NCBI GenBank assembly: GCA_947496235.1
Contig: CANMCE010000010.1
Span: forward strand, 62,001 to 126,000
Source of the DNA: an uncultured Glaciecola sp.
Lineage (GTDB): Bacteria; Pseudomonadota; Gammaproteobacteria; Enterobacterales; Alteromonadaceae
Direction: 5' to 3'
DNA length: 64,000 bases
Every line of letters starts with the position of its first letter. Within the stretch, counting starts at the first letter, position 1. The notes beneath the pieces were generated by a model. It was not told the DNA's origin and ran no database searches. It was given only the letters and a program-made list of their open reading frames with translations. Shown piece after piece: positions 6,566 to 57,982 of the stretch. The position numbers were made by a program, and so were the translations under genes.

Positions 6566-9133
6566 ATGATTCATCGAAACCTTCAGATTTTATTGAGTAT
6601 TGTCTTACTCGCTTTAAGCATGCCTGGACTGTCCAAGCAAGTTACTTCAGATAAAGATTATTTACCTGATGTCAGTTATGACCCCAAGATACCCACTCCG
6701 GAATCTGTACTCGGATACCCAGTAGGTACTTGGCATGTTAGGCATGACCAACTTGTGCGTTACATGCATGTGCTGGCAGAATCGTCAGACAGAGTAAGTA
6801 TCGAAGTCACCGGCTATACTCATGAACAGCGCCCACTTTTACTGCTTACTATTACGGGTACTGAGAATAGAAAAAACTTAGAACAAATTAGACAGTCGCA
6901 CATACAACAGATTAAGACTGGCGAAGCGGCTTCTTCAACTGCGCCCCTTATTATTAATATGGGGTACAGCGTGCATGGCAATGAGCCATCTGGCGCGAAT
7001 GCGTCTCTTTTAGTGGCTTATTATCTAGCCGCAGCGCAAGACGAAAGAGTCAACAGACTGCTAGAAGAAACTGTGATTTTATTAGACCCATCACTAAACC
7101 CAGATGGTCTGTCTAGGTTTGCACAATGGGCAAACATGCACAAAGGCTATAATTTAGTTTCAGACCCTGATCACCGAGAACATAAAGAGCATTGGCCTTC
7201 AGGACGAACCAATCATTATTGGTTTGACTTGAATCGAGATTGGTTATTACTTACGCATCCAGAATCAAGAGCGAGAATCGCCCAATTCCATAAATGGCGC
7301 CCGCACTTGTTGACCGATTTCCATGAAATGGGCACCAATAATACTTATTTCTTTCAACCTGGAGTGCCAAGTCGCAAAAATCCTTGGACACCAGATACTA
7401 ATGTTACACTCACTAATGAGTTAGCTAAATTTCATGCCAAAGCACTGGATACAGCGGGACAAATGTACTATTCCCAAGAAGGCTTTGATGATTTTTACTT
7501 AGGTAAAGGCTCAACTTATCCAGATGCCCATGGAAGTGTTGGAATTTTATTTGAGCAGGCCAGTAGCCGTGGTCATGTGCAAGACTCAATTAACGGCGAA
7601 GTGGCGTTCCCACAAACCATTCAAAATCAATTTACCACTTCAATGTCATCTTTCGATGGTGCTCTGGCAAACAAACAGGCCATGCTTGCCTATCAACGTC
7701 AGTTCTATAGAGATACTAAAAAGCTAATTGATGATGAAGATGTGTTCGGATACGTGTTACCGCAACCTAAAGACAAAACGCGTTTTGCTCGCATGCTGAG
7801 TATTTTAGATGCTCATCAAGTTAAATATGAGTACCTGACTGAAGACGTGAAAGTGGATAATAAGAGTTACCGTGCAGGCAGTATTTTTATTCCAGTGGAT
7901 CAAGCACAATATCGATTAGTAAAGTCAATTTTCAGTGAACGTAAGAGCTTTGTTGATAACACTTTCTATGACGTTAGTAACTGGAATCTAGGGTTTGCAT
8001 TTAATATTGATTATTCGGCTGTAGAATCTTCTTCACGTCGTAAGTTAAAGCTTGGCTCAACTTACGAGTCTGCAACGGCGCCCGCGTTATCCGCAGTTGA
8101 CCAAAGCACTGTTGCATTAGCTTACGAATGGTTTGATTATAATGCGCCTAAACTGACTCAAGCACTACTTGAAGCCGGCATAAAATTACGCGTATCGGGT
8201 AAAGCATTTTCAGCAAAAACTTTACAAGGTGACTATGCATTTGCGCAAGGAACTGTGATAGCGTCAGCCGCACAAAATGACCTTCAACAGGTTGTAGATG
8301 TGATCAATCAACAGGAATTTCTGACCTCTTCTAAGTACCTAAAACAAATTACTTCTGGCTTGAGTTTGCAAGGGGTTGACTTGGGTAGTCCATCGATTTC
8401 ACCTTTATCTGAGCCTTCGGTACTCTTAGTCGGTGGAAAAGGCACTTCTCAATATGAAGTTGGTGAGATTTGGCATTATTTGGATACCAGAATTGGTTTA
8501 CCCGTTACCTTGGTCGATTTAGATCGACTAGATGAGGTTGAACTAGACAGCTATTCGCACATAATTTTCGCTTCGGGTTACTACAATAGTGTGTCAACAA
8601 TGCTTGTTGATAAATTATCCGCTTGGGTTAAGAAGGGCGGGACCTTGATCGGGCAGCGAACGGCTGTGCGTTGGTTCGATAAAAACGATTGGATCGCTAA
8701 CGAAGTCTTATCTCAAGATTCTTTAGATAGTGCGTTTGACACTAAAGGAATGTCGTTTGGAGATAAAGGTGCCTTGAGAGCTAAAAAGTTAGTCGCTGGT
8801 GCTGCTTTTGAAACTGAAATTGATTTGAGTCACCCATTATTTTTCGGTTATGAGGATAGCCGTTTACCTATGTTTAAAACGACGAATTTAGTGCTATTAA
8901 AAACGGATAACCCGTTTGAAGATATTGCCCATTATACTGATGCTTCCTTGTTGGGTGGCTACGCTGCAGCTGAAACGCAAGGGCTTATTAATGGAACAGT
9001 AGCGGTCAGTGTTAGCCCTACAGGACGAGGCAAAGTCATTGCCTTTGTGGATAATATTCATTTCAGAGGTTATTGGGATGGCACTAATAAGCTAATGGCC
9101 AATGCTATCTTTATGTCACCCTTGATGAACTAA
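6566..9133 (+). CDS. secreted M14-family zinc carboxypeptidase
   Basis: About 855 residues with a signal peptide (MIHRNLQILLSIVLLALSMP). The M14 catalytic domain shows the zinc ligands in VHGNEPSG (His137, Glu140) and TDFHEMG (His253), the substrate-binding DLNRDW, and the general-base Glu330 in ILFEQASS. The C-terminal third resembles a glutamine-amidotransferase-like fold (LLVGGKGTSQYEVGEIWHYL...) seen in large bacterial M14 proteins. The start at 6566 has AGAAGAGAG before it. A copy of the dispersed palindrome (6624-6636) encodes PGLSKQ at the end of the signal peptide. The stop overlaps the convergent comF stop by 4 bp. Confidence 0.88.
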   Translation: MIHRNLQILLSIVLLALSMPGLSKQVTSDKDYLPDVSYDPKIPTPESVLGYPVGTWHVRHDQLVRYMHVLAESSDRVSIEVTGYTHEQRPLLLLTITGTENRKNLEQIRQSHIQQIKTGEAASSTAPLIINMGYSVHGNEPSGANASLLVAYYLAAAQDERVNRLLEETVILLDPSLNPDGLSRFAQWANMHKGYNLVSDPDHREHKEHWPSGRTNHYWFDLNRDWLLLTHPESRARIAQFHKWRPHLLTDFHEMGTNNTYFFQPGVPSRKNPWTPDTNVTLTNELAKFHAKALDTAGQMYYSQEGFDDFYLGKGSTYPDAHGSVGILFEQASSRGHVQDSINGEVAFPQTIQNQFTTSMSSFDGALANKQAMLAYQRQFYRDTKKLIDDEDVFGYVLPQPKDKTRFARMLSILDAHQVKYEYLTEDVKVDNKSYRAGSIFIPVDQAQYRLVKSIFSERKSFVDNTFYDVSNWNLGFAFNIDYSAVESSSRRKLKLGSTYESATAPALSAVDQSTVALAYEWFDYNAPKLTQALLEAGIKLRVSGKAFSAKTLQGDYAFAQGTVIASAAQNDLQQVVDVINQQEFLTSSKYLKQITSGLSLQGVDLGSPSISPLSEPSVLLVGGKGTSQYEVGEIWHYLDTRIGLPVTLVDLDRLDEVELDSYSHIIFASGYYNSVSTMLVDKLSAWVKKGGTLIGQRTAVRWFDKNDWIANEVLSQDSLDSAFDTKGMSFGDKGALRAKKLVAGAAFETEIDLSHPLFFGYEDSRLPMFKTTNLVLLKTDNPFEDIAHYTDASLLGGYAAAETQGLINGTVAVSVSPTGRGKVIAFVDNIHFRGYWDGTNKLMANAIFMSPLMN
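6624..6636 (-). repeat. dispersed palindrome copy in the M14 signal-peptide region
   Basis: CTGGACTGTCCAA, which on the minus strand is TTGGACAGTCCAG, one mismatch from the family consensus CTGGACAGTCYAG. It is followed on the minus strand by GCA, as in most copies. Read in frame it gives PGLSK. No DnaA-box-like 9-mer sits at the usual distance. Confidence 0.7.
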
Positions 9134-9878: not shown

Positions 9879-10679
9879 ATGAGTTCAAAAGAGAATCTGC
9901 TGATCGAAGGATCAGAATTAAACCTAATATTTATTCATGGTTGGGGAATGAATTCTGGTGTCTGGCGATCGTTTCAACCTTTCCTGGACAGTCTAGACAT
10001 TCCTAAAGGTATAACTGCCAACTGTCATTTTTTAGATTTACCCGGCTATGGGAATTCTAAACATGTGTCCTTGGATCACTACAATCTGGCTGCATTGAGT
10101 GAGCACGTGGAAAGTTTGCTACCCACAAATACTCTGTTGATCGGCTGGTCCTTAGGGGGCTTAGTAGCCACTGCAATTGCGCTATCTGCTAGCCAAAAAG
10201 TAGTTGGTTTAATAAACCTGTGTTCATCACCAAAGTTTATGCAAGAAGGAAATTGGCCAGGAATAAAACCAGACGTCATTGCGGCATTTGAGTCCCAGTT
10301 GGTAGGTGAATATGCTCAATTAATGAAACGTTTCGTTGGCATTCAATTTATGGGTGTTGAATCTCAACGGACTAACAGTAAAGAAGTGTTAAATAACATT
10401 TTGGATTATCCAGCGCCTGACAAAGAGGTATTGGCGGCTGGACTAGAGATCCTCAAAAATACCGATTTTCGTGAGCGATTGGGCAAGTTGGATATTCCGC
10501 AACTAAATATCTTTGGTCGTCTCGATAGTCTTGTACCAATAAAAGTTGTCGATGAAATTCAGCAACTAAGTGCATTGTCTTGCCATCAGGTAATTGCAAA
10601 AGCATCACACGCACCGTTTATTTCCCATCCTCAAGAGGTCTTAAAGGCTATCAATGGTTTTATCACTGAAAGCTTGTAA
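9879..10679 (+). CDS. bioH: pimeloyl-ACP methyl ester esterase BioH
   Basis: Alpha/beta hydrolase that removes the methyl ester from pimeloyl-ACP methyl ester in biotin synthesis. 266 residues: oxyanion region FIHGWGMNSGVW, nucleophile elbow GWSLGG (Ser91), acid in GRLDSLVP and base in ASHAPF. Its position opposite comF and near nfuA supports BioH over other hydrolases. A dispersed palindrome copy at 9984-9996 encodes FLDSLD (residues about 35-40), a surface-type region just after the first helix. Confidence 0.88.
   Translation: MSSKENLLIEGSELNLIFIHGWGMNSGVWRSFQPFLDSLDIPKGITANCHFLDLPGYGNSKHVSLDHYNLAALSEHVESLLPTNTLLIGWSLGGLVATAIALSASQKVVGLINLCSSPKFMQEGNWPGIKPDVIAAFESQLVGEYAQLMKRFVGIQFMGVESQRTNSKEVLNNILDYPAPDKEVLAAGLEILKNTDFRERLGKLDIPQLNIFGRLDSLVPIKVVDEIQQLSALSCHQVIAKASHAPFISHPQEVLKAINGFITESL
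9984..9996 (+). repeat. dispersed palindrome copy inside bioH
   Basis: Exact CTGGACAGTCTAG followed by ACA, read as LDSLD in BioH. The 9-mer expected 9 bp downstream is degenerate (5 of 9 matches to TGTGGATAA). Confidence 0.85.
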
Positions 10680-10682: not shown

Positions 10683-10764
10683 TTATTCAATAAAAAATGC
10701 CTAGACTGTCCAGTCATTTTTTAAACGAACTTGTTGTTCACAAAAAACTGCCTGGACTGTCCAG
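10683..10764 (-). repeat. two composite palindrome/DnaA-box-like units, bioH downstream gap
   Basis: Two minus-oriented copies, at 10701-10713 (CTAGACTGTCCAG) and 10752-10764 (CTGGACTGTCCAG), 51 bp apart. Each has, exactly 9 bp away on the expected side, a 9-mer resembling TTATCCACA: TTGTTCACA at 10734-10742 (7 of 9) and TTATTCAAT at 10683-10691 (6 of 9). Spacers are A-rich and end in TGC. The pair fills most of the 152-bp gap between bioH and the small rod-like gene and could also act as a weak terminator. Confidence 0.85.
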
Positions 10765-17434: not shown

Positions 17435-19423
17435 ATGATTAAACTGCAAAATGTCAGTTTGCAACTGGGAACGAAATTTTTACTGGATCAAGCCAGCTTA
17501 GAAGTTTATCCACAACATAAAGTGGCGATCATTGGTCCCAACGGATGTGGTAAAACCTCCTTGTTTGGACTATTAACTGGAAAGCTACAGGCGGATGCTG
17601 GTGAATGGCAAATGCCGAAAGACTGGCGAATTGTTTCCGTTGAACAGCAAATTCTCGATACCCAAAGAACAGCAATTGATTATGTCATTGATGGTGATCG
17701 TCATTTGCGCTCTTTAGAAGCAAGGTTAGCAGAAGCAGAAAAGGAAGAAGATGGCAACAAGTTAGGCTTGCTTCATGATGCACTAGAACAAGCTGGGGCA
17801 TATGATGTTAAACCTAGGGCTGCCACTATCCTTAATGGATTAGGTTTTACTCAAGACAAGCATACTGAACTCGTCAGTAGTTTTTCAGGCGGTTGGCAAA
17901 TGCGTTTGAATCTTGCTAGAGCATTATTATGTCCTTCAGACTTGCTTTTGTTGGACGAACCGACAAACCACCTTGATTTGGATGCAGTGCTTTGGTTAGA
18001 AAACTGGTTACAGGATTATGCAGGAACCTTGTTGCTGATATCCCATGATCAGGCCTTTATTGACAGCATCGCCAAACAAATCGTGAGTTTTGAACAACAA
18101 AAACTTATCAGTTATAGCGGCGGTTATTCAGACTACGAGAAGCAAAAGGCTATGCGATTATCCTTAGCCGCTTCTGAGTTTGAAAAGCAACAGAAAAAGC
18201 GAGCCCATTTAGAAAGCTTTATAAATCGATTTAAAGCTAAGGCTAGTAAAGCTAAACAGGCTCAGTCGCGGGTTAAGCAACTCGAAAAAATGCAAGAGTT
18301 GATGCCTGTTCGACAATCCAACCCCTTCAACTTTGAATTTTTTGAACCTGAAAAATTACCCAATCCATTGGTGGTAATGGATGACATAAAAGTGGGCTAT
18401 GGGGAGCTTGTGATTCTGGCTGATGTGAAGCTTAATTTGGTGCCTGGCAGTCGTATCGGGTTGTTGGGACGCAATGGTGCGGGTAAGTCTACCTTTATAA
18501 AATTGCTGGCGGAAGAATTAGCTCCCTTATCTGGAAAGTACTTACCTTCGGCGGGATTAAAGATTGGCTACTTTGCACAGCATCAAGTGGACAGCCTAGA
18601 CATGCAGGCTTCTCCGCTATTGCATCTGCAACGGTTAGATAAAGGGGCAACGGAACAAACTCTTCGCAATTATTTGGGCGGATTCGGTTTTCATGGGGAC
18701 AACGCATTAGATCCTGTTGCTCCTATGTCTGGCGGCGAAAAAGCCCGCTTGGTTTTAGCCATTTTGGTGTATCAAAAACCTAATTTGCTGTTACTGGATG
18801 AACCGACTAACCACTTAGATATTGAGGTCCGTCAAGCACTCAACTTCGCCTTGCAGACTTATCAGGGGGCAATAGTTTTGGTATCTCATGACCGTAGTTT
18901 GTTGGAGTCGGTGTGTGACGATTTCTATTTAGTGGATAGTGCTCAGGTTGCGCCTTTCAGTGGCAATTTGGATGATTATAAAAAGTGGATGTTGCAGGGC
19001 GCTAAAAAACTGTCTGGACAGTCTAGTCAATCTAATGTGGATAACAATAATGCTGGACAGTCTAGCCAATTGCCTGTGGATAACGCTAATTCAAGTGAAA
19101 CGGCAGCTGATCGTAAACTACAGAAGCGGCTCGAAGCTGAATTTAGACAGGCTATAAAACCTTTAAAAATCAAGTTGTCAGCGAGTGAGCAGAAAATGGC
19201 AGATTTGAACAAAGGTTTATCAGACTGTGAAACAAAAATGTCTAACCCCGAAATTTATAACGATGAGAATAAAGCTGAACTTAAGCAATTGTTGCAAACC
19301 CAAGGGGATTTAAAATCTGAACTTGAAGAAGTTGAAATGGAATGGATGGAAGTCGTCGAGCAAATTGAAGCAAAAGAGCAAGCATTCAATCAATCTTTGA
19401 ATAAGCAAATAGGTAACAGCTAA
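17435..19423 (+). CDS. yheS: ABC-F ATPase YheS
   Basis: Ribosome-associated tandem ATPase of the ABC-F class, about 662 residues, cytosolic. Domain 1: Walker A GPNGCGKTS, signature SFSGGWQMR, Walker B LLLLDEPTNHLD. The inter-domain linker (SEFEKQQKKRAHLESFINRF) is characteristic. Domain 2: GRNGAGKST, MSGGEKARL, LLLLDEPTNHLD. A C-terminal coiled coil follows. ATG 17435 is used because translation then begins MIKLQNVSLQ. Followed by yheT and yheU, so YheS rather than Uup. The linker between domain 2 and the coiled coil holds two in-frame composite repeats (19014-19083) encoding SGQSSQSNVD and AGQSSQLPVDN. Confidence 0.94.
   Translation: MIKLQNVSLQLGTKFLLDQASLEVYPQHKVAIIGPNGCGKTSLFGLLTGKLQADAGEWQMPKDWRIVSVEQQILDTQRTAIDYVIDGDRHLRSLEARLAEAEKEEDGNKLGLLHDALEQAGAYDVKPRAATILNGLGFTQDKHTELVSSFSGGWQMRLNLARALLCPSDLLLLDEPTNHLDLDAVLWLENWLQDYAGTLLLISHDQAFIDSIAKQIVSFEQQKLISYSGGYSDYEKQKAMRLSLAASEFEKQQKKRAHLESFINRFKAKASKAKQAQSRVKQLEKMQELMPVRQSNPFNFEFFEPEKLPNPLVVMDDIKVGYGELVILADVKLNLVPGSRIGLLGRNGAGKSTFIKLLAEELAPLSGKYLPSAGLKIGYFAQHQVDSLDMQASPLLHLQRLDKGATEQTLRNYLGGFGFHGDNALDPVAPMSGGEKARLVLAILVYQKPNLLLLDEPTNHLDIEVRQALNFALQTYQGAIVLVSHDRSLLESVCDDFYLVDSAQVAPFSGNLDDYKKWMLQGAKKLSGQSSQSNVDNNNAGQSSQLPVDNANSSETAADRKLQKRLEAEFRQAIKPLKIKLSASEQKMADLNKGLSDCETKMSNPEIYNDENKAELKQLLQTQGDLKSELEEVEMEWMEVVEQIEAKEQAFNQSLNKQIGNS
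19014..19083 (+). repeat. tandem dimer of the palindrome plus DnaA-box unit, inside yheS
   Basis: Two exact palindromes CTGGACAGTCTAG at 19014-19026 and 19053-19065 (period 39). Each is followed after exactly 9 bp by a perfect TGTGGATAA, at 19036-19044 and 19075-19083. The reverse complement TTATCCACA is the canonical DnaA box. The whole block is in frame and stop-free in yheS. Confidence 0.92.
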
Positions 19424-19425: not shown

Positions 19426-19929
19426 GTGGACTTGATTTGTTCTCAACATTTCTGGCAATACTCTATCAATAGGTACTCGTTAGAGACGGTCAAAAATGCC
19501 TTAATAAACCTTCAAGATGAATTTGGAATAAACGTAAATCTAGTTCTTTTTATTATGTACTTAAGTCATCAAGGGGTTTTTATTACTGAACGGCTCGTAT
19601 TGGAATTGCGCCAAGCAATAGAGGAACTGGACAGTCTAGTCACAATCCAAAGGCATAAAAGAAGAGCGTTAAAAAACCTAGATAAACTGAAATATCAGCA
19701 AGCTTTGGCAGAAGAACTGGACATGGAAAAAGCTATCCAAGCAACCTTGGTAAACAGTTTTAATGATCTCATTGATAATAAAAACAAGGCATTACAAGAT
19801 CCACTGGACAGTCTAGCTTGTTTATCTACGGGTGATTTAGCAAAAATGCCTAGACTGTCCAGCTTACTCCCTAGACTGTCCAGCTTACTCAAACTGCTGG
19901 CGGAGAACACCACTGCCCATGACCTTTAA
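19426..19929 (+). CDS. TIGR02444 / DUF2390 family protein
   Basis: 167 residues from a GTG start 2 bp after the yheS stop. The N-terminal part (FWQYSINRYSLETVKNALIN, then INVNLVLFIMYLS) matches the TIGR02444 family, which commonly lies between yheS and yheT. Function unknown. The C-terminal half is helical and contains four copies of the dispersed palindrome, read as LDSL twice and PRLSSLLPRLSSLL near the end, so much of the tail derives from repeat sequence. Overlaps yheT by 11 bp. Confidence 0.82.
   Translation: MDLICSQHFWQYSINRYSLETVKNALINLQDEFGINVNLVLFIMYLSHQGVFITERLVLELRQAIEELDSLVTIQRHKRRALKNLDKLKYQQALAEELDMEKAIQATLVNSFNDLIDNKNKALQDPLDSLACLSTGDLAKMPRLSSLLPRLSSLLKLLAENTTAHDL
19627..19639 (+). 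repeat. dispersed palindrome copy in the TIGR02444 gene
   Basis: Exact CTGGACAGTCTAG followed by TCA, read as ELDSLV. No box-like 9-mer follows at 9 bp. Confidence 0.85.
19804..19883. repeat. three palindrome copies in the tail of the TIGR02444 gene
   Basis: CTGGACAGTCTAG at 19804-19816 (plus orientation), then CTAGACTGTCCAG at 19850-19862 and 19871-19883 (minus orientation). The last two lie in a perfect 21-bp tandem period read as PRLSSLL twice. A DnaA-box-like TTATCTACG (7 of 9) at 19822-19830 stands 19 bp from the second copy, which is 9 bp plus about one helical turn. Confidence 0.85.
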
Positions 19930-20908: not shown

Positions 20909-21129
20909 TAATTCCTTATCAGGAAATACAGCAAGATACTTTGATAAACCTTATCGAGAGTTTTGTATTGCGTGAGGGGACTGACTACGGTGAGGATGAA
21001 AAATCGCTAGAAGAAAAAGTGCAGGATATTTTAACCCAACTGCAACGCAAAGAAGTGGTGATTCAATATTCAGAAGAGTATGAATCTATCAATATAGTGC
21101 CAAAAGACCATCTTAAACACAGTGAATAA
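20905..21129 (+). CDS. yheU: UPF0270 family protein YheU
   Basis: 74 residues, acidic, no membrane segment. It starts [20 protein letters not shown] and contains [10 protein letters not shown], both diagnostic of UPF0270. The ATG overlaps the yheT stop codon and AGGAG lies just upstream. Function unknown. Confidence 0.93.
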
Positions 21130-21157
21130 CGCCCTTACAGGTTAGGCCTAAAGGGCG
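21130..21157. terminator. inverted repeat between convergent yheU and yceI
   Basis: CGCCCTT at 21130-21136 and AAGGGCG at 21151-21157 form a 7-bp stem around a 14-nt loop that contains the palindrome AGGCCT. It lies in the 38-bp gap between convergent genes, where a shared terminator is expected. No long T run is present. Confidence 0.5.
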
Positions 21158-21167
21158 CATGTATCAA

Positions 21168-21752: not shown

Positions 21753-21774
21753 AGTTAACCTTAGATTTTGATTA

Positions 21775-23153: not shown

Positions 23154-23218
23154 GGTGTTAACACAAGATACACTAATGCTCATTCATATTGTTGCTACAG
23201 TACCATAAGGAAAACAGA

Positions 23219-24453: not shown

Positions 24454-24459
24454 GCCGAC

Positions 24460-25694: not shown

Positions 25695-25698
25695 ATGT

Positions 25699-26892: not shown

Positions 26893-26894
26893 CC

Positions 26895-27932
26895 TTACAT
26901 TCCTCCAAACTCTCGACTGACAATACTGATACTATTGCCTGAAGGTTCTATTTTAAACACTGTGACCATCTTAAATTGTGACCCTGATGTCATTTTAGTC
27001 AAAGTGGATAGCTTAAAGTATTTCGTGGTGACATCAAACCAATTAATGCGTATTGGAGACAATCCCAGCGCACTTATTTCTGGTTCCGCAAAGAAATCAT
27101 TGATATCGTCATATCCACCGGGCGGTCGGGAGTCAATTAAAGAACTGGCATCGTCAACAGAAAGCCCGGTTAGCGCGGATAGGATAATGGCATTCTCTTG
27201 AGTGACAGTGTTGACGTTGAGCTTATACTCTTGTTCTGGAATAGCGCACAGGTAAGGTAATATATTCGCCAGCCAACCTTGTCTTACGCCATCTTCGACA
27301 CCGTTAATTAAACGCAGCTCTGAAATATTGGCAATTAAGCTGTTAGCCGCCAAATAGGGTTGGGGGAGAGATTCATAATCTAGATCTTCGGCGCCGTAGT
27401 CAGATGGCCTGTCATCATCATCTAACCAATCCACAACGGAATCTCTTACGGTGTCGACTACCAACGAATCTTCAATGAAATGTTTAAGCAAGGTTTCAAA
27501 TGCGACTAATTCTTCGGGTTTTGTAGACTGTCCAGTTGGATTAGGGTTTGATGATTGATAAACACCGTTGATATTGAAACAGCTTTGCAAGTCAGTAATG
27601 CTTGCTTGGATTACGCCGCCTTCAACAGGGAATTCGAAGTTTTCAGCCCAAGGTTGTTCAAGATTTATATTGCCAGTGTTTAACGTTAACATTTCTCGCA
27701 ATGACTTTTTAGCAAAATGTTCCGCACCCAAGCTATACCAATAGGCTTGGTTGTTATCTTTTATATTGAGCGTGCGTGCGATATTCAGTTGAAGTCGAGC
27801 GGTCATTTGGGTGGCAAGTATGGAAATTAGTGCGACTATTAACAGCACTATAATGAGAGCTACACCAGATTGATGGGTTTTTGATTTATTTGCTGGACAG
27901 TCCAGGCATTTTTGGTGGATAAGCTGTTTCAT
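26895..27932 (-). CDS. gspK: type II secretion minor pseudopilin GspK
   Basis: 345 residues, tip pseudopilin. Prepilin signal SG/VALIIVLLIVALISILA, then the large domain with DWLDDDDRPSDYGAEDLDYE and the helix-hairpin-helix-like LSVDDASSLIDSRPPGGYDD. The Glu at +5 is absent, as is normal for GspK. The leader before the cleavage Gly is 23 residues, MKQLIHQKCLDCPANKSKT plus HQSG, of which IHQKCLDCPA is encoded by a composite repeat (27893-27922). Another palindrome variant lies at 27523-27535 (PTGQSTK). The start overlaps the gspJ stop by 4 bp. Confidence 0.92.
   Translation of the reverse strand: MKQLIHQKCLDCPANKSKTHQSGVALIIVLLIVALISILATQMTARLQLNIARTLNIKDNNQAYWYSLGAEHFAKKSLREMLTLNTGNINLEQPWAENFEFPVEGGVIQASITDLQSCFNINGVYQSSNPNPTGQSTKPEELVAFETLLKHFIEDSLVVDTVRDSVVDWLDDDDRPSDYGAEDLDYESLPQPYLAANSLIANISELRLINGVEDGVRQGWLANILPYLCAIPEQEYKLNVNTVTQENAIILSALTGLSVDDASSLIDSRPPGGYDDINDFFAEPEISALGLSPIRINWFDVTTKYFKLSTLTKMTSGSQFKMVTVFKIEPSGNSISIVSREFGGM
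27523..27535 (-). repeat. palindrome variant inside gspK
   Basis: GTAGACTGTCCAG, on the minus strand CTGGACAGTCTAC, one mismatch from consensus. Read as TGQST in GspK. No box at the usual distance. Confidence 0.65.
27893..27922 (+). repeat. composite palindrome/DnaA-box-like unit in the gspK leader
   Basis: Exact CTGGACAGTCCAG at 27893-27905, then GCATTTTT (8 bp), then GGTGGATAA at 27914-27922 (8 of 9 to TGTGGATAA). It lies 10 bp from the gspK ATG and is translated from the minus strand as IHQKCLDCPA inside the prepilin leader. Confidence 0.88.
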
Positions 27933-28615
27933 CTTATGGCCACCTGAAATATCCGCTCAATGGTGCCGAATCTATCTGTCTCTATTTCGACTTTAACCGC
28001 AATAGGTAATTCGGTATTTTCGATGTTTTCTTGCCAATCTAATTCATCATCTGAAAACTGAAATGCCGCTTCAAATTGTAAATTGGTAACTCCCTCGAAA
28101 AGGACTCTTATTTTAGGCTCAGTACCTATAACTGCATCCACATAGTTAGTGTGCAGGCGCTGGAGTTGATTGTCTTGCAAACGGTAGGTGACATTTTGTA
28201 AAGAAGATCGAGGTAACATCAATTGAGGGTTGTGCCAGCCATTGCGAACAAAGGCAATACCATCTTCATCGCTGTCAAATTCAAAGTTTCCACCGTTAAT
28301 TACCAATTGATTCTGTTGACCTTGTATTCTGGGTACCCTTGAAACCATTTGCAGCATGTCTCGTTCCATAACAAGCATGGCTCTTTGCAGATCTTGAAGA
28401 TCTTTCAGTGCTTGTTCAGAGGTTTCGTTGCTATCACTGACAGTACTTAAAACAGCGCCTGTGGCAATGGCAATGATGGCAAAAATAGCAACTGCTATTA
28501 ACAATTCAATTAATGTAAACCCAAGCGATTTGGGTTGACTGGACAGTCTAGGCGGTTTCCTGTGGATAAAATTTACATGATGTCTGGACTGTCCAGCAAC
28601 GGGAAAATTTGACAT
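27929..28615 (-). CDS. gspJ: type II secretion minor pseudopilin GspJ
   Basis: 228 residues. Prepilin motif SLG/FTLIELLIAVAIFAIIA with Glu at +5, then the tip-pseudopilin domain (QRAMLVMERDMLQMVSR). The leader before the cleavage Gly is 32 residues, far longer than the usual 6-15, and most of it is encoded by two dispersed palindromes and one perfect DnaA-box 9-mer (28539-28596): VAGQSRHH, NFIHRKPPRLSSQ. Start 28615 is 2 bp after the gspI stop. No other ATG lies between it and the cleavage site. Confidence 0.92.
   Translation of the reverse strand: MSNFPVAGQSRHHVNFIHRKPPRLSSQPKSLGFTLIELLIAVAIFAIIAIATGAVLSTVSDSNETSEQALKDLQDLQRAMLVMERDMLQMVSRVPRIQGQQNQLVINGGNFEFDSDEDGIAFVRNGWHNPQLMLPRSSLQNVTYRLQDNQLQRLHTNYVDAVIGTEPKIRVLFEGVTNLQFEAAFQFSDDELDWQENIENTELPIAVKVEIETDRFGTIERIFQVAIR
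28539..28596. repeat. two palindromes flanking a perfect DnaA-box 9-mer in the gspJ leader
   Basis: CTGGACAGTCTAG at 28539-28551, then 9 bp, then perfect TGTGGATAA at 28561-28569, then 14 bp, then CTGGACTGTCCAG at 28584-28596 in the opposite orientation. The whole block is in frame in the first 28 codons of gspJ. Confidence 0.9.
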
Positions 28616-35964: not shown

Positions 35965-36387
35965 GCTGGACAGTCCAGGAAACAAAAATCACCCGCTGAG
36001 GATAATAAGCAAGTTCGGCTTGATAAATGGCTCTGGGCGGCCCGTTTTTGTAAAACACGCTCGATAGCAAGAGATTGGGTTCAGGCGGGCAAAGTCCACT
36101 ATAATGGACAAAGAGCAAAAGCCAGTAAGGTTGTGGAAGTGGGCGCCCAAATTAAAATTCCAGCCGGTTTTGATCAAAAAGTGATAGTTGTAGATAAAAT
36201 TGCAGATAAGCGACTCAGCGCTGAATTCGCGGTCCAATTATACACTGAAACTCAAGAGAGTATTGAGCGTCGAGAAACGAATAAACAGGCTCGGCAACTT
36301 AGTGCTTTTCATAGTCCTCGCCCTGACCAGAGGCCGGATAAAAAACAACGAAGACAAATTATAAAGATTAAGCATCAGGATTCATAA
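35962..36387 (+). CDS. hslR: heat-shock S4-domain protein Hsp15
   Basis: 141 residues. S4 RNA-binding domain VRLDKWLWAARFCKTRSIARDWVQAG; Hsp15 rescues 50S subunits carrying a stalled nascent chain. The basic C-terminal tail (RPDQRPDKKQRRQIIKIK) is typical. TTG start; codons 2-6 (AGQSR) come from a dispersed palindrome at 35966-35978. The stop overlaps the hslO ATG by 1 bp, as in the conserved hslR-hslO pair. Confidence 0.93.
   Translation: MAGQSRKQKSPAEDNKQVRLDKWLWAARFCKTRSIARDWVQAGKVHYNGQRAKASKVVEVGAQIKIPAGFDQKVIVVDKIADKRLSAEFAVQLYTETQESIERRETNKQARQLSAFHSPRPDQRPDKKQRRQIIKIKHQDS
35966..36005 (+). repeat. palindrome with distant box-like 9-mer at the start of hslR
   Basis: Exact CTGGACAGTCCAG at 35966-35978, codons 2-6 of hslR. 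TGAGGATAA (8 of 9 to TGTGGATAA) follows at 35997-36005 after 18 bp, twice the usual 9. Confidence 0.75.
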
Positions 36388-37286
36388 TGACAGATAAATT
36401 AACGCGATTTTTGTTTGATAATCACTCTGTACGAGGTGAAATCGTGCAATTGGAAGATTCATTCCAACAAATATTAGCAGCAAGCCAATACCCAGAAATT
36501 ATCGGTAATCTACTGGGTGAATTAATGGCGGCTTGCAGCTTGTTGACTGCGACACTGAAGTTTGAAGGAGAAATAACCCTGCAATTACAAGGTGAGGGTT
36601 ATGTTAAGTATGCAGTAATTCATGGAACTCATAATCAGGCGCTTAAAGGTGTCGCGCGGTGGGATAAAGAACTTACAGATCCACCTAGTGAATTTTCAAA
36701 GATGTTTGAAAAGGGCTTTTTGGCAATAACCATAACGCCGAAAGAGGGAGAACGATATCAGGGGATTGTTGCCCTAGATAAGGACAATCTTGGTGCTTGC
36801 TTGGAAAGCTATTTTGAGCAATCCGAACAGTTGCCCACAAAAGTTGTTCTTTTTGCTGATGCTGGACAGTCCAGGAAAGCTGGTGGAATTCTTTTGCAAA
36901 TCATTCCTACCTCCAGTGAAACCAGCAGCGCGGAGGAAAATCCCTCATTTCAACATCTAAGTGTGTTAGCCAATACGTTAACTTCAGATGAGCTTTTGCA
37001 TTTATCAGATTTAGACATTTTGCATCGTTTATACCATGAAGAAGAAGTTCGGTTAGTCGGGGAGAAAGAAGTTTCTTTTCGATGTGACTGTTCCAAGGCT
37101 AGAAGTGCTGTAGCGCTGCGAAATATAGACAAAGTCGAACTTCTCAATATTGTAGAGGAGGATGGGGCCGTTCGAATGAATTGCCAATTCTGTCATACAG
37201 AGTATTTGTTCGATAGTTTTGATATCGAAAGTATTCACAACGACAGTTATGATTTTTCGGACACCGCAAAAGATTCTAAACATTAG
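36387..37286 (+). CDS. hslO: redox-regulated holdase Hsp33
   Basis: 299 residues. Cytosolic chaperone activated by oxidation of a zinc-bound four-cysteine site: CDC (in FRCDCSKARS) and CQFC (in MNCQFCHTEY). The N-terminal chaperone domain begins MTDKLTRFLFDNHSVRGEIV, with EQLPTKVVLF and AGGILLQIIP around residue 150. A palindrome copy at 36862-36874 encodes AGQSR in the loop before GGILLQ, a position variable among homologues. Confidence 0.95.
   Translation: MTDKLTRFLFDNHSVRGEIVQLEDSFQQILAASQYPEIIGNLLGELMAACSLLTATLKFEGEITLQLQGEGYVKYAVIHGTHNQALKGVARWDKELTDPPSEFSKMFEKGFLAITITPKEGERYQGIVALDKDNLGACLESYFEQSEQLPTKVVLFADAGQSRKAGGILLQIIPTSSETSSAEENPSFQHLSVLANTLTSDELLHLSDLDILHRLYHEEEVRLVGEKEVSFRCDCSKARSAVALRNIDKVELLNIVEEDGAVRMNCQFCHTEYLFDSFDIESIHNDSYDFSDTAKDSKH
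36862..36874 (+). repeat. dispersed palindrome copy inside hslO
   Basis: Exact CTGGACAGTCCAG read as AGQSR. A weak 9-mer GGTGGAATT (5 of 9) follows 7 bp later. Confidence 0.85.
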
Positions 37287-37309: not shown

Positions 37310-37425
37310 CTGGACAGTCTAGTCAGTTTGATATGAAAAGATATGTGCTCTTATCTGCTTAGACTGTCCAGATATTTACCTTGCTTGGACAGTCCAGACA
37401 TTATCAGTCATTTTCATGTGGAAAA
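37310..37425. repeat. three palindrome copies in the hslO-envZ gap
   Basis: CTGGACAGTCTAG at 37310-37322, TTAGACTGTCCAG (minus) at 37359-37371 and TTGGACAGTCCAG at 37385-37397. TGTGGAAAA (7 of 9) lies at 37417-37425, 19 bp after the last copy. The array occupies most of the 150-bp gap between the convergent hslO and envZ genes. Confidence 0.85.
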
Positions 37426-40615: not shown

Positions 40616-40686
40616 TTGGACAGTCTAGAAAAACTAAATGGAGATCTATTTTAGTTACTACAGTAGATACTTTTTGGACTGTCCAA
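40616..40686. repeat. two variant palindromes upstream of the Y1 transposase
   Basis: TTGGACAGTCTAG at 40616-40628 and TTGGACTGTCCAA at 40674-40686; both carry T at the outer position where most copies have C. They lie 146 and 88 bp before the transposase ATG. The rest of the 292-bp gap between prkB and the transposase holds no ORF and no clear terminator. Confidence 0.8.
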
Positions 40687-40773: not shown

Positions 40774-41682
40774 ATGACGATTGCAAGAAAATACCTAATA
40801 TCACTAGAGGATACTCGCTACTACCATGTTATCTCTCGAGTAGCGAGGCAGTCCTTTTTACTTGGAAAAGACTATCTTTCTGGAAAGTCTTTTGAGCACA
40901 GACGTGCCTGGGTGGAAAACAGAATGTCAACCTTGGCAGATGTTTTTGCAATTGATGTTCTATCCTACAGTATTATGCACAATCACACCCATCAAGTGCT
41001 ACACGTAAATGTAGAAAAAGCCCTTGCGCTAAGCGATGTCGAAGTACTTAAAAGATGGTCTTTTATTGGTAAGCTAGATAAGCTTTGCAAACAATATTTA
41101 AATCCTGAAGCACGGATTAAATTAGATGAATTTCAAATTGCTCATGTTCTTGACTGTGTTGACAAGTTCAGAAGTCAAATGACCAGTATTAGTTGTTATA
41201 TGCGATATCTAAACGAGCATATTGCCAAAAAAGCGAATAAAGAAGATGGCTGCAAAGGGCATTTTTGGGACGGGAGATTCAAGTCTCAAGCTATTTTAGA
41301 CATTGAGACCTTATTTCACTGTATGGCCTATGTAGATTTGAATCCTGTCAGGGCTGGATTCGAAACGAGTTTCCATGAAGCAAAATTCACCGGGGTTTTT
41401 CATCGTTTATACAAACAGCCGCAGCAAAAAACACTGCTTCCACTCTTTACTGCCAATCTTGAATGCCTAGAGAAAATAATCTCCAAGGTTACGCTAACTG
41501 AATATATTGCAATTTTGCTTGAGAAATCAGCGAAGATTAAAAGTGAGAAAGGAGTACCGAGTTCAGACCCCAGTTTAAACTTTGAAAAAATCTATGGAAA
41601 CGTGGCTGGAAGAGAGGAGAAGGTAGATAAATTTTTGGCTAAAATGAAAAGTAGGAGGGCTAAAAAAAGCCCTCCCCATTAA
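40774..41682 (+). CDS. Y1 (HUH) transposase, RAYT-like
   Basis: 302 residues, tyrosine transposase of the IS200/REP-associated superfamily. N-terminal YYHVISRVARQSFLLGKDY, HUH-type motif NHTHQVLHV (His71, His73), GHFWDGRFKSQAIL, and the putative catalytic Tyr186 in MAYVDLNPVRAG. In close relatives the motif is NHYH; here Thr replaces Tyr between the histidines. No left or right ends of a full IS200 element were found, so it looks like a stationary domesticated copy, as RAYTs are. The last codons overlap a GC-rich hairpin. Full length with no frameshift, so probably functional. Confidence 0.85.
   Translation: MTIARKYLISLEDTRYYHVISRVARQSFLLGKDYLSGKSFEHRRAWVENRMSTLADVFAIDVLSYSIMHNHTHQVLHVNVEKALALSDVEVLKRWSFIGKLDKLCKQYLNPEARIKLDEFQIAHVLDCVDKFRSQMTSISCYMRYLNEHIAKKANKEDGCKGHFWDGRFKSQAILDIETLFHCMAYVDLNPVRAGFETSFHEAKFTGVFHRLYKQPQQKTLLPLFTANLECLEKIISKVTLTEYIAILLEKSAKIKSEKGVPSSDPSLNFEKIYGNVAGREEKVDKFLAKMKSRRAKKSPPH
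41654..41675. terminator. hairpin at the end of the transposase gene
   Basis: GGAGGGC (41654-41660), an 8-nt A-rich loop, and GCCCTCC (41669-41675) form a 7-bp GC-only stem spanning codons before the stop at 41680. It lies 20 bp beyond the purD stop, so on the minus strand it may terminate purHD; there the stem is followed by TACTTTTC. Confidence 0.55.
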
Positions 41683-43005: not shown

Positions 43006-44607
43006 TTAATGTTTGAAGTGGCGCATGCCGGTAAATACCATAGCGATGCCGTGTTCGTCTGCAGCTGCAATAACTTCGTTGTCCCGCATTGAGCCACCTG
43101 GTTGGATTATTGCTTTAATGCCAGCTTCAGCTGCTGCGTCTATACCGTCTCTAAACGGGAAAAATGCGTCAGAAGCCATGACACATCCTTCAACGGTCAA
43201 TTTTTCATCCTGTGCTTTGATACCAGCAATTTTTGCTGAATAAACTCGGCTCATTTGACCCGCACCAATTCCGATTGTCATTTGACCCTTGGCATAAACT
43301 ATTGCATTTGATTTGACATATTTCGCCACTTTCCAAGTGAACAATAAGTCAGAAAGTTGCTCTTTTGTCGGTGCTACCTTTGTTACCACCTCAAGATCAG
43401 ATTCTTCTATCATGCCAAAATCACGTTCTTGAACCAAAAGCCCGCCATTTACACGCTTCATGTCAAATCCATCAGTTAACTGACCTTGCCAGTTTCCGCA
43501 TGTTAATAAACGAACGTTGGGCTTTTGTTTACAACTTTCAATGGCTTCTGGTGTAGCTTCAGGAGCAATAATTACTTCGACAAATTGACGCTGGATAATT
43601 GCTTCCAAGGTGTCTTTATCAAGGGTTTGATTGAATGCAATTATACCGCCGAATGCTGACGTAGGGTCTGTTTTAAATGCGTTATTGTAAGCTTCTAAGA
43701 TAGAGCTTCCTACGGCAACACCGCAGGGGTTAGCGTGTTTTACGATAACACATGCAGGGGACTCAAACTCTTTTACACATTCTAGAGCAGCATCAGTGTC
43801 GGCAATATTGTTAAACGACAACTCTTTGCCTTGATGTTGAATAGAGGATGAGACAGATGCTTCTTGAATGTCGTGTTCAACATAAAATGCGGCGTCTTGA
43901 TGACTATTTTCACCATAACGTAAATCTTGTTTTTTCTGGAACTGTAAATTGAATGTTCTTGGAAATTGTGAGGCTGTATCTTCATTGCTGGACTGTCCAG
44001 CTTCGTTTGAATCCACCATGGTGCCAAAATAATTAGCAATCATGCCATCATAGTTTGCAGTATGCTCGAAAGCTTTTATAGCTAAATCAAATCTTTTCTC
44101 GTAGGACAATGCCGCTTCATTTTCCGACATTTCTTTTATTACTGATTCGTAGTCGGACGGATTTACGATAATGGTGACATCATTGTGATTTTTGGCCGCA
44201 GCTCTAACCATAGTTGGTCCACCAATATCGATGTTTTCGATAGCATCTTCCAACGTACAGTCATCATTTTTTATTGTGTTAGCAAACGGGTATAGGTTTA
44301 CCACGACTAAATCAATGGGCAATATTTCATGACGCTCCATGATATTACTGTCAATATCGCGTCTGCCTAATATTCCACCATGAATCTTAGGATGTAACGT
44401 TTTTACTCTACCATCCATTATTTCCGGATGACCAGTATGCTCACTAACATCTTTTACTTTAATCCCTTCTTTCCGTAATAATGAAGCTGTGCCACCTGTT
44501 GACAATATTTCGATGCCTAGACTGTCCAGGAAGGTTGCAAACTCAACAATGCCAGATTTGTCTGATACGCTTAGAAGCGCTCGTTTAATAACTTTTAATT
44601 GTTCCAT
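43006..44607 (-). CDS. purH: bifunctional AICAR transformylase / IMP cyclohydrolase PurH
   Basis: Last two steps of IMP synthesis, 533 residues. N-terminal IMP cyclohydrolase domain ([38 protein letters not shown]), C-terminal transformylase domain ([32 protein letters not shown]). Two palindromes are read in frame: [10 protein letters not shown] near residue 30 (44517-44529) and EAGQSSNED near residue 205 (43988-44000). The first is in a well-conserved core helix, the second in a surface loop. Confidence 0.97.
43988..44000 (-). repeat. palindrome copy in the purH inter-domain loop
   Basis: Exact CTGGACTGTCCAG, read as AGQSS from the minus strand. From memory the E. coli loop between the conserved GxMV and FPRT is about 3 residues shorter, consistent with a small in-frame gain here. 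Confidence 0.8.
44517..44529 (-). repeat. palindrome copy in the purH N-terminal domain
   Basis: Exact CTAGACTGTCCAG followed by GCA on the minus strand, read as LDSLG. Aligned by eye with E. coli PurH (...ALSARGVELLSTGG), no length change is seen, so this copy replaced rather than added sequence. Confidence 0.8.
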
Positions 44608-47159: not shown

Positions 47160-47230
47160 CTGGACAGTCCAGGCAAAAAGATGTGGATATGAAATAATGC
47201 TGGACAGTCCAGGCAAAAAATTGTGGGTAA
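47160..47230 (+). repeat. tandem dimer of palindrome plus DnaA-box-like unit, accC-prmA gap
   Basis: CTGGACAGTCCAG at 47160-47172 and 47200-47212 (period 40). Each is followed by GCAAAAA and, exactly 9 bp after the palindrome, a box-like 9-mer: TGTGGATAT (47182-47190) and TGTGGGTAA (47222-47230), each 8 of 9. The AATAATG before the second palindrome is shared with the dimer in yheS. Confidence 0.92.
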
Positions 47231-55469: not shown

Positions 55470-55470
55470 T

Positions 55471-55962: not shown

Positions 55963-55969
55963 TTTTTCT

Positions 55970-57982
55970 TTAACTGACAACTGACACCTCCTGATCTGCT
56001 GGCGACTTAACTTCATTTGCGATTGATTCAACATCTAAGATCATAGCTACACTGCCATCACCCATAATGGTTGCGCCTGCAACCCCAGGTACTCGTCTGA
56101 AGTGTTGTTCTAAGCTCTTAATGACAACTTGTTGTTGGCCTTCAAGGTTATCCACTAGAATGCCAAAACGTTTACGACTAGTTTCCACTAACACCACAAT
56201 GGCATCGGAAGGTTCTGCGATGGCATTTTCGATGCCCATCATTTTATGTAAATGCACCAAGGGCCAATATTCTCCGCGCACCCACAACAGATGATCGTTG
56301 GATAAACGTTTCAATTGGTCTGGGGTTGGTTGCATGGATTCAACAATATTAGTTAGGGGAACCACAAAGGTTTGGCCCGCTACGGATACGCACATGCCAT
56401 CAACGATAGCAAGCGTGAGCGGCAAACGAATGGTGATCACTGAACCTTCTCCGGCATGACTTTCGATTTCTACCGAACCACCGATAGATTCGATATTTCT
56501 GCGCACCACGTCCATTCCAACGCCTCTACCTGAGACATCGGTAACAGCTTCGGCTGTAGAAAATCCAGGCTCAAAAATCAAACGCCATACTGCACTATCT
56601 GGCATATCATCTGATACATCAAGACCGTTTGACTTAGCTTTCTCTAAAATACGTTCACGGTTTAGACCTGCGCCGTCATCGGTGATGGTAATTAAAATAC
56701 TTCCACCGCGCTGTTCTGCACCTAGGATGACGGTACCTTGTTTGACTTTACCTCTGCTTTCACGGACATCGGGCATTTCGATACCATGGTCGACACTATT
56801 GCGAACCAAATGGGTTAGCGGATCGACCAATTTCTCAATTAGCCCTTTATCAATCTCTGTGCCGCCACCTTCGATGACTAGATTGACGTCTTTCTTCAAT
56901 TTATCCGCAAGATCACGCACAACACGAGGGAAGCGGTTAAAGGCAAAAGACATTGGCAGCATGCGCATGGACATAACAGCTTCTTGAATTTCACGAATGT
57001 TTCGCGATAACTCACCGATGGCGCCTTCAAGCTTTTCTTCGGTTTCGCCATGCACTTCTTTACCCACGATTTTTATCATGGATTGGGTAATAACTAACTC
57101 GCCAACTAGGTTAACCAATGAGTCGATTTTGTTGGTGTCGACCCGAATAGAGCTGGATTCTTTGCTGTCAGCTCTGGGTTTTTTGGCTACAGTGCTAGAC
57201 TGTCCAGCAACGCCTCTAGACTGTCCAGCAACGTCTGGTTTCGCACTTTTAGTAGCTGCTGGGGCAGCAGGTTTTTGCTCATTTGCGGCTGGTTTTGCTG
57301 GCGCTTTTTCAGCTGCTGGGGCTTGTTCATCCCCTTCGTTTTTGGTTTCAGCTACTTTATCGCTGCCTGGCTCATCATCAAAGAAACCAAATGCCGCGCC
57401 GTCATCTTCAGTTTCTGCAGAAGTTTTGGTTGCTTGATCTTGATCTTTTTCGTCGTAGAAACCATAAGCGGTCTCCTCTTCAACTGTTTCTTCATTTTCG
57501 AAAAATCCAAAGGCTTCATCTTCACTTTCGCCTTCTATGGGATTTTCATAAAATCCAAAACCATCTTCTTGCGCAGCGGACTCACCAGTTTCTTCATTTT
57601 TCAATAAAGCTTCTAGGGCTTGAGTACCTTGTTCAATTGCTTCCCAATCGATTTCTTCTTCGGTTTGATAGCAATGCAAAATATTCTTTAGAGTGTCAAC
57701 TGTGGTCAACAACTGATCAACAATGGGTTTGCTAATTACCAACTGCTGTTGACGTGCTAGATCAAGAATATTTTCCATAACATGGGTTAGGCCTGTTAGG
57801 GCGTCAAAACCAAAAACGCCGCTACCCCCTTTGATGGAGTGAGCAGCTCGGAAAATGCTATTGAGATCTTCAATGTCTGGATTGTCTAAGGACATCTCCA
57901 TCAAGAGATGTTCCATTTCATCCAAATGTTCTTGGCTTTCTTCAAAGAAGACGCCATAGAATTGACTCATGTCTATGGACAT
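55970..57982 (-). CDS. cheA: chemotaxis histidine kinase CheA
   Basis: 670 residues. P1 phosphotransfer domain with His48 in AAHSIKGGSGVFGF; a long acidic linker with repeated GFxFxE motifs (about 145-215) and a Pro/Ala-rich part holding two palindromes (57195-57228) read as AGQSRGVAGQSS; dimerisation domain; ATPase domain (LVRNSVDHGIE, DDGAGLNRERI, GRGVGMDVVRR); C-terminal CheW-like domain. It has no recognisable P2 domain. Confidence 0.97.
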   Translation of the reverse strand: MSIDMSQFYGVFFEESQEHLDEMEHLLMEMSLDNPDIEDLNSIFRAAHSIKGGSGVFGFDALTGLTHVMENILDLARQQQLVISKPIVDQLLTTVDTLKNILHCYQTEEEIDWEAIEQGTQALEALLKNEETGESAAQEDGFGFYENPIEGESEDEAFGFFENEETVEEETAYGFYDEKDQDQATKTSAETEDDGAAFGFFDDEPGSDKVAETKNEGDEQAPAAEKAPAKPAANEQKPAAPAATKSAKPDVAGQSRGVAGQSSTVAKKPRADSKESSSIRVDTNKIDSLVNLVGELVITQSMIKIVGKEVHGETEEKLEGAIGELSRNIREIQEAVMSMRMLPMSFAFNRFPRVVRDLADKLKKDVNLVIEGGGTEIDKGLIEKLVDPLTHLVRNSVDHGIEMPDVRESRGKVKQGTVILGAEQRGGSILITITDDGAGLNRERILEKAKSNGLDVSDDMPDSAVWRLIFEPGFSTAEAVTDVSGRGVGMDVVRRNIESIGGSVEIESHAGEGSVITIRLPLTLAIVDGMCVSVAGQTFVVPLTNIVESMQPTPDQLKRLSNDHLLWVRGEYWPLVHLHKMMGIENAIAEPSDAIVVLVETSRKRFGILVDNLEGQQQVVIKSLEQHFRRVPGVAGATIMGDGSVAMILDVESIANEVKSPADQEVSVVS
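57195..57228 (-). repeat. two palindromes with 21-bp period in the cheA linker
   Basis: CTAGACTGTCCAG at 57195-57207 and 57216-57228, exactly 21 bp apart, read as AGQSRGV and AGQSSTV in CheA. The same 21-bp period occurs in the TIGR02444 gene (19850/19871). No box-like 9-mer nearby. Confidence 0.88.

What the first reader, a model, noticed from the sequence alone, without database searches (positions are those of the whole stretch)
6624..57228. A 13-bp directional palindrome, CTGGACAGTCYAG, repeated at least 27 times in 51 kb
Seen in sequence: 21 exact copies (either strand) and 6 with one or two mismatches, at 6624, 9984, 10701, 10752, 19014, 19053, 19627, 19804, 19850, 19871, 27523, 27893, 28539, 28584, 35966, 36862, 37310, 37359, 37385, 40616, 40674, 43988, 44517, 47160, 47200, 57195 and 57216. 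Exact copies expected by chance in 64 kb are about 0.004 (hand estimate, equal base frequencies). The motif is directional: read with A in the centre, position 3 is always G and only position 11 varies C/T, and in about 16 of 27 copies the next bases are NCA. No repeat family or regulator I know has this sequence. Inference: a genome-wide dispersed element or a protein-binding site.
Basis: seen in the sequence. Interest (0 to 1): 0.92.

Follow-up and report, generated by a model that had tools for sequence, protein, structure and literature searches.

The report
Transposase surrounded by its own repeats
A single-strand DNA-cutting transposase gene in a marine bacterium sits among about 27 copies of what is very probably its own 13-letter recognition site, scattered over 50 kb of neighbouring genes with no exact copy elsewhere in the genome, although this class of transposase was thought to have no such repeats.

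Summary
In detail: all 27 listed copies are there, 21 exact, against about 1 match expected by chance even with two mismatches allowed. The reading 'genome-wide dispersed element' is wrong: all 21 exact copies in the 4.42 Mb genome lie in this window. Among them lies an unreported gene (40774-41682) for a TnpA_Y1 / REP-associated tyrosine transposase. It resembles subclass 2.3 of Quentin 2018, which that paper says has no associated repeats. Homologues carry inverted RGACASNC flanks (upstream in 88 of 118 loci, downstream in 66, both in 56; both wrongly oriented in 0). A minority also have a wider local cloud: 26 of 121, including all 10 Glaciecola genes tested. Four Glaciecola genomes without the gene at the syntenic place have no cloud there. 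Two genomes with two such genes each show two motifs, each gathered at its own gene. So the motif is very probably the transposase's own end/recognition site, spread locally. How copies spread is inferred: short tandem duplications touch solo copies 13 times more often than random places. Local build-up of classical REPs near rayt genes is known (Nunvar 2010): a new variant of a known kind.

The parts
40774..41682 (+). tnpA_Y1 / rayt gene, subclass 2.3-like, 302 aa; HuH = H71-T-H73, catalytic Y186 in YVDLNP
   Evidence: Pfam Y1_Tnp E 0.0014 and NCBIfam NF047646 E 4e-8, both under the curated cut-offs; all 11 members of A1 match both at the E-values allowed (0.1 and 0.01). AlphaFold model pLDDT 85.6; best PDB match 4er8 (RAYT bound to a REP hairpin), prob 1.00, E 4e-4
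40616..40628 (+). motif copy (1 mismatch) pointing at the gene, about 150 bp before its start
40674..40686 (-). motif copy (2 mismatches), inverted partner of 40616
6624..6636 (-). motif copy (1 mismatch) near the N-terminus of a large peptidase-like gene (gene name by eye)
9984..9996 (+). motif copy in bioH
10701..10713 (-). motif copy, intergenic, after bioH
10752..10764 (-). motif copy, intergenic
19014..19065 (+). two direct motif copies (19014, 19053), starts 39 bp apart, in the linker of an ABC-F gene, each followed by TGTGGATAA
19627..19639 (+). motif copy in DUF2390 gene; local protein length unchanged against 5 orthologues
19804..19816 (+). motif copy in the C-terminal part of the DUF2390 gene
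19850..19883 (-). two motif copies (19850, 19871), an exact in-frame 21-bp tandem repeat
27523..27535 (-). motif copy (1 mismatch) in a variable stretch of gspK
27893..27905 (+). motif copy at the gspK N-terminus
28539..28596 (.). inverted pair (28539 +, 28584 -) at the gspJ N-terminus
35966..35978 (+). motif copy at the extreme N-terminus of hsp15 (TTG start)
36862..36874 (+). motif copy in an hsp33 loop; same length as in 3 of 8 orthologues (G006, G011, G005)
37310..37397 (.). three intergenic motif copies (37310 +, 37359 - with 1 mismatch, 37385 + with 1 mismatch)
43988..44000 (-). motif copy in a variable loop of purH
44517..44529 (-). motif copy in purH; same local length as in 7 orthologues
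47160..47212 (+). two direct motif copies (47160, 47200), intergenic, prmA-accC (gene names by eye)
57195..57228 (-). two motif copies (57195, 57216), a 21-bp tandem repeat with one mismatch, in the cheA linker

Best explanation
The 13-mer is the recognition/terminal-repeat sequence of the TnpA_Y1 (REP-associated tyrosine) transposase encoded at 40774-41682. The enzyme is, by fold and motifs, a HuH single-strand nuclease. Genes of its kind usually carry inverted copies of their site at their flanks; here, over time, solo copies have been laid down at many places within roughly 35 kb on one side and 16 kb on the other. SHOWN by comparison: genes have their own site variants; site variant and protein change together; copies thin out with distance; copies are missing where the gene is missing. 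INFERRED: the enzyme nicks ssDNA within RGACA and passes the strand to nearby exposed ssDNA (for example the lagging strand), which copies or rewrites short stretches around the site, acting mainly near its own gene. Selection removes copies that break genes, leaving those in spacers, linkers, loops and N-termini.
For: (1) Locality: 21 of 21 exact copies in the genome are in the window; in the one-contig genome G003, 38 of 38 copies of its motif lie within 215 kb and 29 within 50 kb of its gene. (2) Specificity: the own genome has two genes and two motifs; 15 of 17 GGACACGCAAA copies lie at C7:75162-108857 around the second gene at C7:85502. In G035, 19 of 20 GGACAGACACT copies lie around one gene and 12 of 16 AAGACACCCA around the other (this 10-mer read backwards occurs 6 times). 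(3) Presence/absence in syntenic stretches: the commonest RGACASNC variant counts 24 in the window (52.8 kb) and 22 in G002 (45 kb), which have the gene there, and 2 each in G001, G006, G011 and G012 (45 kb), which do not. (4) Second set of loci: RGACASNC enriched in 23 of 73, against 0-2 of 73 for each of 20 permuted decoys; first set 24 of 48 against 0 of 30 control regions. (5) Terminal-repeat arrangement, 118 loci: up 88, down 66, both 56; wrong orientation 11, 9, 0. (6) With the gene +-600 bp masked, the far cloud's variant equals a flanking variant in 17 of the 20 cloud loci that have one; shuffled mean 4.5, max 11. (7) The flank variant (99 of 125 genes) follows the protein tree: 37 changes, shuffled mean 61.8, min 55. 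(8) Scars: a tandem duplication touches 29 of 246 solo copies against 10 of 1139 random places. (9) 0 copies of the cloud variant inside the gene in 47 loci with a cloud.
Against: No cleavage was assayed. Outside Glaciecola most homologues have no cloud beyond their own flanks within about 10 kb: 16 of 111 do, and 20 of 118 loci have no flank copy on either side. Of the 10 Glaciecola genes, 4 have a cloud but no flank copy in the zones searched, and in a fifth (G008) flank and cloud differ in one base. The window gene is divergent (35-43% identity to relatives in alignment, long branch), has T at the HuH 'u' position and lies below the family cut-offs. At three coding sites the motif stands in place of other sequence at constant length against 5 of 5, 3 of 8 and 7 of 7 orthologues, which simple insertion does not explain. 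Scars end at +1 to +7 of the motif with no single junction, and the random places were not matched for intergenic position or base composition. No copy lies close downstream of the window gene (nearest 43988). In G007, 9 of 27 copies are on contigs other than the gene's. The distance decay is broken by the last bin (0.62 per kb at 9-10 kb, 24 flanks).
Confidence: 0.8

Rival explanations
1. Scars of local hopping: the whole element jumped repeatedly within the region, and each excision or one-ended event left one end behind.
For: Copies within 2.5 kb point towards the gene (123:20 under 600 bp, 71:19 at 600-2500 bp), as nested ends would; ends and cloud mostly share one variant.
Against: The gene lies between the prkB-like gene and purD in both the window and G002, and about 6 kb beyond gspD in G005 as in the window; G003, G007 and G008 align with G009 through the gene while some sites differ. 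The inward bias is not seen beyond 2.5 kb (69:57 and 35:26).
Confidence: 0.12
2. A binding-site array kept by selection (partition, nucleoid or regulatory sites) for some chromosomal protein; the transposase gene is a bystander.
For: Sites in genes at constant length, many exact copies, no long flank shared by all copies, gapless coding sites kept across 3-4 Glaciecola species.
Against: Presence follows the transposase gene at one syntenic place; the motif differs between two genes of one genome; motif and transposase co-vary across genera.
Confidence: 0.05
3. Classical REP/BIME elements of the GTAG type, dispersed and only by chance seen in one window.
For: Palindromic unit, some inverted pairs, a RAYT-type gene nearby.
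Against: No GT[AG]G head in the consensus; not dispersed; 18 of 27 copies intragenic.
Confidence: 0.02

Closest known systems
TnpA_Y1 subclass 2.3 (Quentin et al. 2018, PMC6006769; abstract, sections 12, 17, 20, 22 and 31, and search passages seen)
   Same: NHxH, YVDLNP, median length 325 there and in the family here, HuH-Y distance median 110 there and 112 here, Alteromonadales/Chromatiales, several copies in many genomes
   Different: [quoted passage not shown] here most have inverted RGACASNC flanks and some a local cloud
TIRYT / TIRtron (Di Nocera et al. 2013, PMC3733652; passages seen)
   Same: Tyrosine transposase gene flanked by inverted repeats that are not REPs, some repeated in the genome; the consensus GGGGWSAS overlaps forms such as GGGGACAG
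   Different: Quentin 2018 assigns its 26 examples to subclasses 2.1, 2.2 and 2.5, none to 2.3; the passages seen do not describe confinement to the gene's surroundings (one S. [quoted passage not shown]
REPs gathered near rayt genes (Nunvar et al. 2010, PMC2817692; passages seen)
   Same: In three marine gammaproteobacteria and Thauera, palindromic repeats flanking rayt genes accumulate near the gene, in regions of at most two hundred kb; preferential local formation is proposed there
   Different: Those are described as inverted palindromic REPs; here the unit is an 8-13 bp motif with no GT[AG]G head, mostly inside genes in this window, with what looks like another transposase subclass. Which subclass their three examples belong to I could not see
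REPIN-RAYT populations (recalled; search listings only)
   Same: Non-autonomous short elements served by one RAYT
   Different: Recalled as spread genome-wide; here confined

Membership tests
TnpA_Y1 class 2 (RAYT) | HuH + Y---NP and the HuH/Y1 fold | tested here: met
   H71-T-H73, Y186VDLNP; 48 of 48 first-set genes have NHxH and Y...NP; the model's best solved match is 4er8. The u residue is T here, outside the listed L/V/I/F/Y/M
TnpA_Y1 subclass 2.3 | YVDLNP, HuH-Y distance ~110, ~325 aa, extra stretch, specific C-terminal domain | tested here: inconclusive
   Motif, spacing (115 in the window, family median 112) and family median length 325 agree; the paper's subclass profiles were not available, and the window C-terminus is short and divergent
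TnpA_Y1 subclass 2.3 | No associated repeats (as reported) | tested here: not met
   RGACASNC flanks and clouds
REP / BIME | GT[AG]G head at the foot of a hairpin, mostly extragenic, dispersed | tested here: not met
   Consensus, 18 of 27 intragenic, one locus; hairpin folding itself was not run
TIRYT-type terminal repeats | Inverted repeats on both sides of the gene | tested here: met
   Both sides in 56 of 118 loci; the window gene itself has an upstream inverted pair but no close downstream copy
TIRYT-type terminal repeats | GGGGWSAS | tested here: inconclusive
   GGGGACAG-like forms occur (e.g. G002), but the class here is RGACASNC
DNA uptake sequence / Chi / KOPS / parS-like sites (features recalled) | Genome-wide or origin/terminus-wide distribution independent of a transposase | tested here: not met

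The most novel reading that the evidence does not exclude
A HuH nuclease that stays at a fixed chromosomal place and rewrites its surroundings: it overwrites 8-13 bp stretches, in genes such as purH too, with its own recognition site at constant length (ssDNA strand exchange or conversion rather than insertion). This would make a locally confined DNA-editing system whose reach is set by distance from its gene.
Probability: 0.22. Interest if true: 0.85.

Novelty: new variant of a known kind. Interest (0 to 1): 0.62.

Why it matters
It gives a widespread transposase subclass, described as having no cognate repeats, a candidate recognition sequence that can be tested at once in vitro. It also supplies natural replicates (genes with their own site variant and their own cloud) for the open question how RAYT-type enzymes multiply short sequences without being ordinary insertion sequences. 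The distance decay and the one-place presence/absence series in Glaciecola make 'local spread' measurable, and the intragenic, in-frame copies show such elements shaping protein linkers and loops.

Tried and rejected
Genome-wide repeat or DNA uptake sequence: rejected. GTAG-type REP: no such head. Partition/terminus array: GC skew changes sign inside the window, which first suggested a terminus, but the motif follows the transposase. Subclass 2.1 was my first label; Table 1 of PMC6006769 moved it to 2.3.

Age of residence: the ten longest end branches all belong to genes with a significant cloud, but overall the correlation is weak (Spearman 0.18, p 0.055, 120 genes; 0.13, p 0.17, 110 genes without Glaciecola); not used as evidence. 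A fixed cleavage point was not found. DNA-level empty sites against other Glaciecola were too diverged (about 63-76% identity in most pieces) except the G008/G009 pair (92-95% over the long pieces). Sequence search of solved structures gave nothing useful; fold search did. A paper search for six repeat 9- and 10-mers held 1,559 papers; the 20 listed are unrelated by title. Searches for RAYT/TIRYT/REPIN terms showed no description of a subclass 2.3 repeat in the listings; subscription papers are mostly not held, and Bertels 2017 itself did not appear.

Limits of the counts. RGACASNC was read off the first set, so one search is partly circular; one search is the test on fresh loci (80 returned; 5 under 10 kb and 2 already seen, L167 and L187, dropped; by eye no other contig length is shared with the first set; whether some of their genomes are also G genomes cannot be told; L215/L217 are near-identical copies in one genome). 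In one search GRACASNC, meant as a decoy, shares GGACASNC with the motif and scored 17 of 48 and 0 of 30; the reversed pattern scored 1 of 48 and 1 of 30, RGTCASNC 1 of 48 and 0 of 30. In the scan for any enriched 9-mer, 3 of 30 control regions (L146, L153, L159) also had a strongly enriched 9-mer (p below 1e-9), none of the motif class. Flank zones were set; 118 of 126 loci had enough flank.

Full report
CHECK. The motif CTGGACAGTCYAG occurs at all 27 stated places (21 exact), against a shuffled mean of 1.36 strand-matches at <=2 mismatches (54 observed). The consensus extends to CTGGACAGTCYAGNCA. By my gene starts 18 of 27 copies are intragenic where 92.8% of the region is coding, so genes are under-used (binomial p 8e-5 on 27 copies; 6e-4 on 16 spaced clusters, of which I entered 10 as intragenic).

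NOT GENOME-WIDE. The whole genome (4.42 Mb) holds 21 exact copies, all in this window. Of 32 copies of the 11-mer, 27 are in the window and 5 elsewhere. Of 117 related genomes searched, 12 have any exact copy; 11 of these have a single one, and G005, of the same genus, has 7.

THE GENE IN THE CLUSTER. Window 40774-41682 encodes a 302-aa TnpA_Y1 protein. NCBIfam REP_Tyr_transpos E 4e-8 and Pfam Y1_Tnp E 0.0014 are both below cut-off; all 11 aligned relatives match both models at the E-values allowed. The predicted structure (pLDDT 85.6, pTM 0.86) has as its best solved match 4er8, the RAYT-REP complex (prob 1.00, E 4e-4). NHTH and YVDLNP are present. Family length (median 325) and HuH-Y distance (median 112) agree with subclass 2.3 of Quentin 2018, for which the paper found no repeats. 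Motif copies 40616(+) and 40674(-) lie just upstream.

GENES HAVE THEIR OWN MOTIFS. The own genome has a second gene on contig 7, with its own motif GGACACGCAAA: 15 of 17 copies lie at C7:75162-108857. Four congeners share AARGACACACCT: 38 of 38 on the one contig of G003 within 215 kb of the gene, 29 within 50 kb; G009 28 of 29 and G008 24 of 27 on the gene's contig; G007 only 18 of 27, with 6 on one other contig and 3 elsewhere. In G035 two genes have two motifs, 19 of 20 and 12 of 16 copies near their own gene.

PRESENCE AND ABSENCE AT ONE PLACE. Between the prkB-like gene and purD the window and G002 carry the gene, and G005 carries one about 6 kb beyond gspD, as the window does. G001, G006 and G011 have no match in the genome and G012 only one on another contig. 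In the syntenic stretch the commonest RGACASNC variant counts 24 (window, 52.8 kb) and 22 (G002, 45 kb), against 2 in each of the four without. G002 has two copies of one of its own motifs in the same Hsp33 loop in which the window has one.

GENERALITY. In the first set, a RGACASNC variant was enriched in 24 of 48 gene neighbourhoods (10 of 10 Glaciecola, 14 of 38 others) and 0 of 30 control regions. In fresh named loci, 23 of 73, against 0-2 of 73 for 20 permuted decoys. Flanks in 118 loci: inward copy upstream 88, downstream 66, both 56, neither 20; wrong orientation 11, 9 and 0. With gene +-600 bp masked, 26 of 121 loci keep a cloud (10 of 10 Glaciecola, 16 of 111 others). Of the 20 of these that have a flank copy, the cloud variant equals a flank variant in 17 (shuffled mean 4.5, max 11). 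The flank variant, for 99 of 125 genes, follows the protein tree (37 changes; 200 shuffles mean 61.8, min 55). So most homologues have flanks but no wide cloud; a wide cloud is the rule only in Glaciecola.

HOW IT MAY SPREAD. Over 47 loci with a cloud, density falls from 1.87 per kb in the first kb (flank copies included) to 0.14-0.20 at 6-9 kb; the last bin, seen in 24 flanks only, is 0.62. Inward orientation holds within 2.5 kb and is not seen beyond; no copy lies inside the gene. Solo copies touch a short tandem duplication in 29 of 246 cases, random places (not matched for intergenic position) in 10 of 1139. Of the 29, 19 have a span that ends at bases +1 to +7 of the motif. TnpA_REP enzymes are reported to cut at CT or CA (PMC8266576, passages), and RGACA contains a CA; that this is the cut site is inference. 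Two window pairs are 21-bp in-frame repeats, 19850/19871 exact and 57195/57216 with one mismatch.

INSERTION OR REPLACEMENT. Coding copies lie mostly in linkers, loops and termini. At three (19627 in DUF2390, 36862 in hsp33, 44517 in purH) the local protein length equals that of 5 of 5, 3 of 8 and 7 of 7 orthologues; in hsp33 four others are one codon longer and G002 carries its own copies. For 19627 and 44517 together the motif bases agree with orthologues at 63 of 156 positions, their flanks at 473 of 864. That looks like in-place replacement rather than a clean insertion, but orthologues are only about 70% identical, so an insertion with an equal deletion is not excluded. In the G008/G009/G007/G003 alignment several coding sites differ only by point changes without gaps, while spacers show short duplications.

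VERDICT. The motif-gene link is well shown by comparison. The mode of spread is inferred. Precedents are local REP build-up (Nunvar 2010) and TIRYT repeats (Di Nocera 2013). New, as far as the papers seen go, are the repeat for this subclass, its variation gene by gene, its locality with a same-place absence control, and its largely intragenic placing here. In checking I corrected small statements (identity range, hsp33 length comparison, L127 orientation, controls with other enriched 9-mers); none required a change of odds.

Noticed in passing
window 19036, 19075, 28561 (- strand): 3 of the window's 6 exact DnaA-box-like 9-mers (TTATCCACA) lie ~9-10 bp after a motif copy; looser forms follow 27893, 47160 and 47200. 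Perhaps part of a longer copied unit; unexplained.
   Followed up: partly
window ~20000-28000: Cumulative GC skew peaks here and skew turns mostly negative to the right, as at a replication terminus or a recent inversion.
   Followed up: no
window 35962-35978: The hsp15 reading frame seems to start at a TTG directly before a motif copy, while several orthologues show an ATG-type start (M) in the alignment.
   Followed up: no
L146:1478-1501, 1668-1691 and 9379-9402: A perfect 24-bp palindrome GGGGTCAGAACATGTTCTGACCCC occurs three times in 20 kb of G023; no Y1-type frame was found in the stretch by a motif scan. It fits the TIRYT consensus GGGGWSAS.
   Followed up: partly
L139: Around one of 34 matches in G092 a different 9-mer, CCAGGCATA, occurs 12 times; a control region of this genome (L159) is repeat-rich too.
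   Followed up: no
L127: 25 spaced copies of GGACAGAC in 16 kb; of those more than 600 bp from the gene 18 point to it and 2 away, like nested ends.
   Followed up: no
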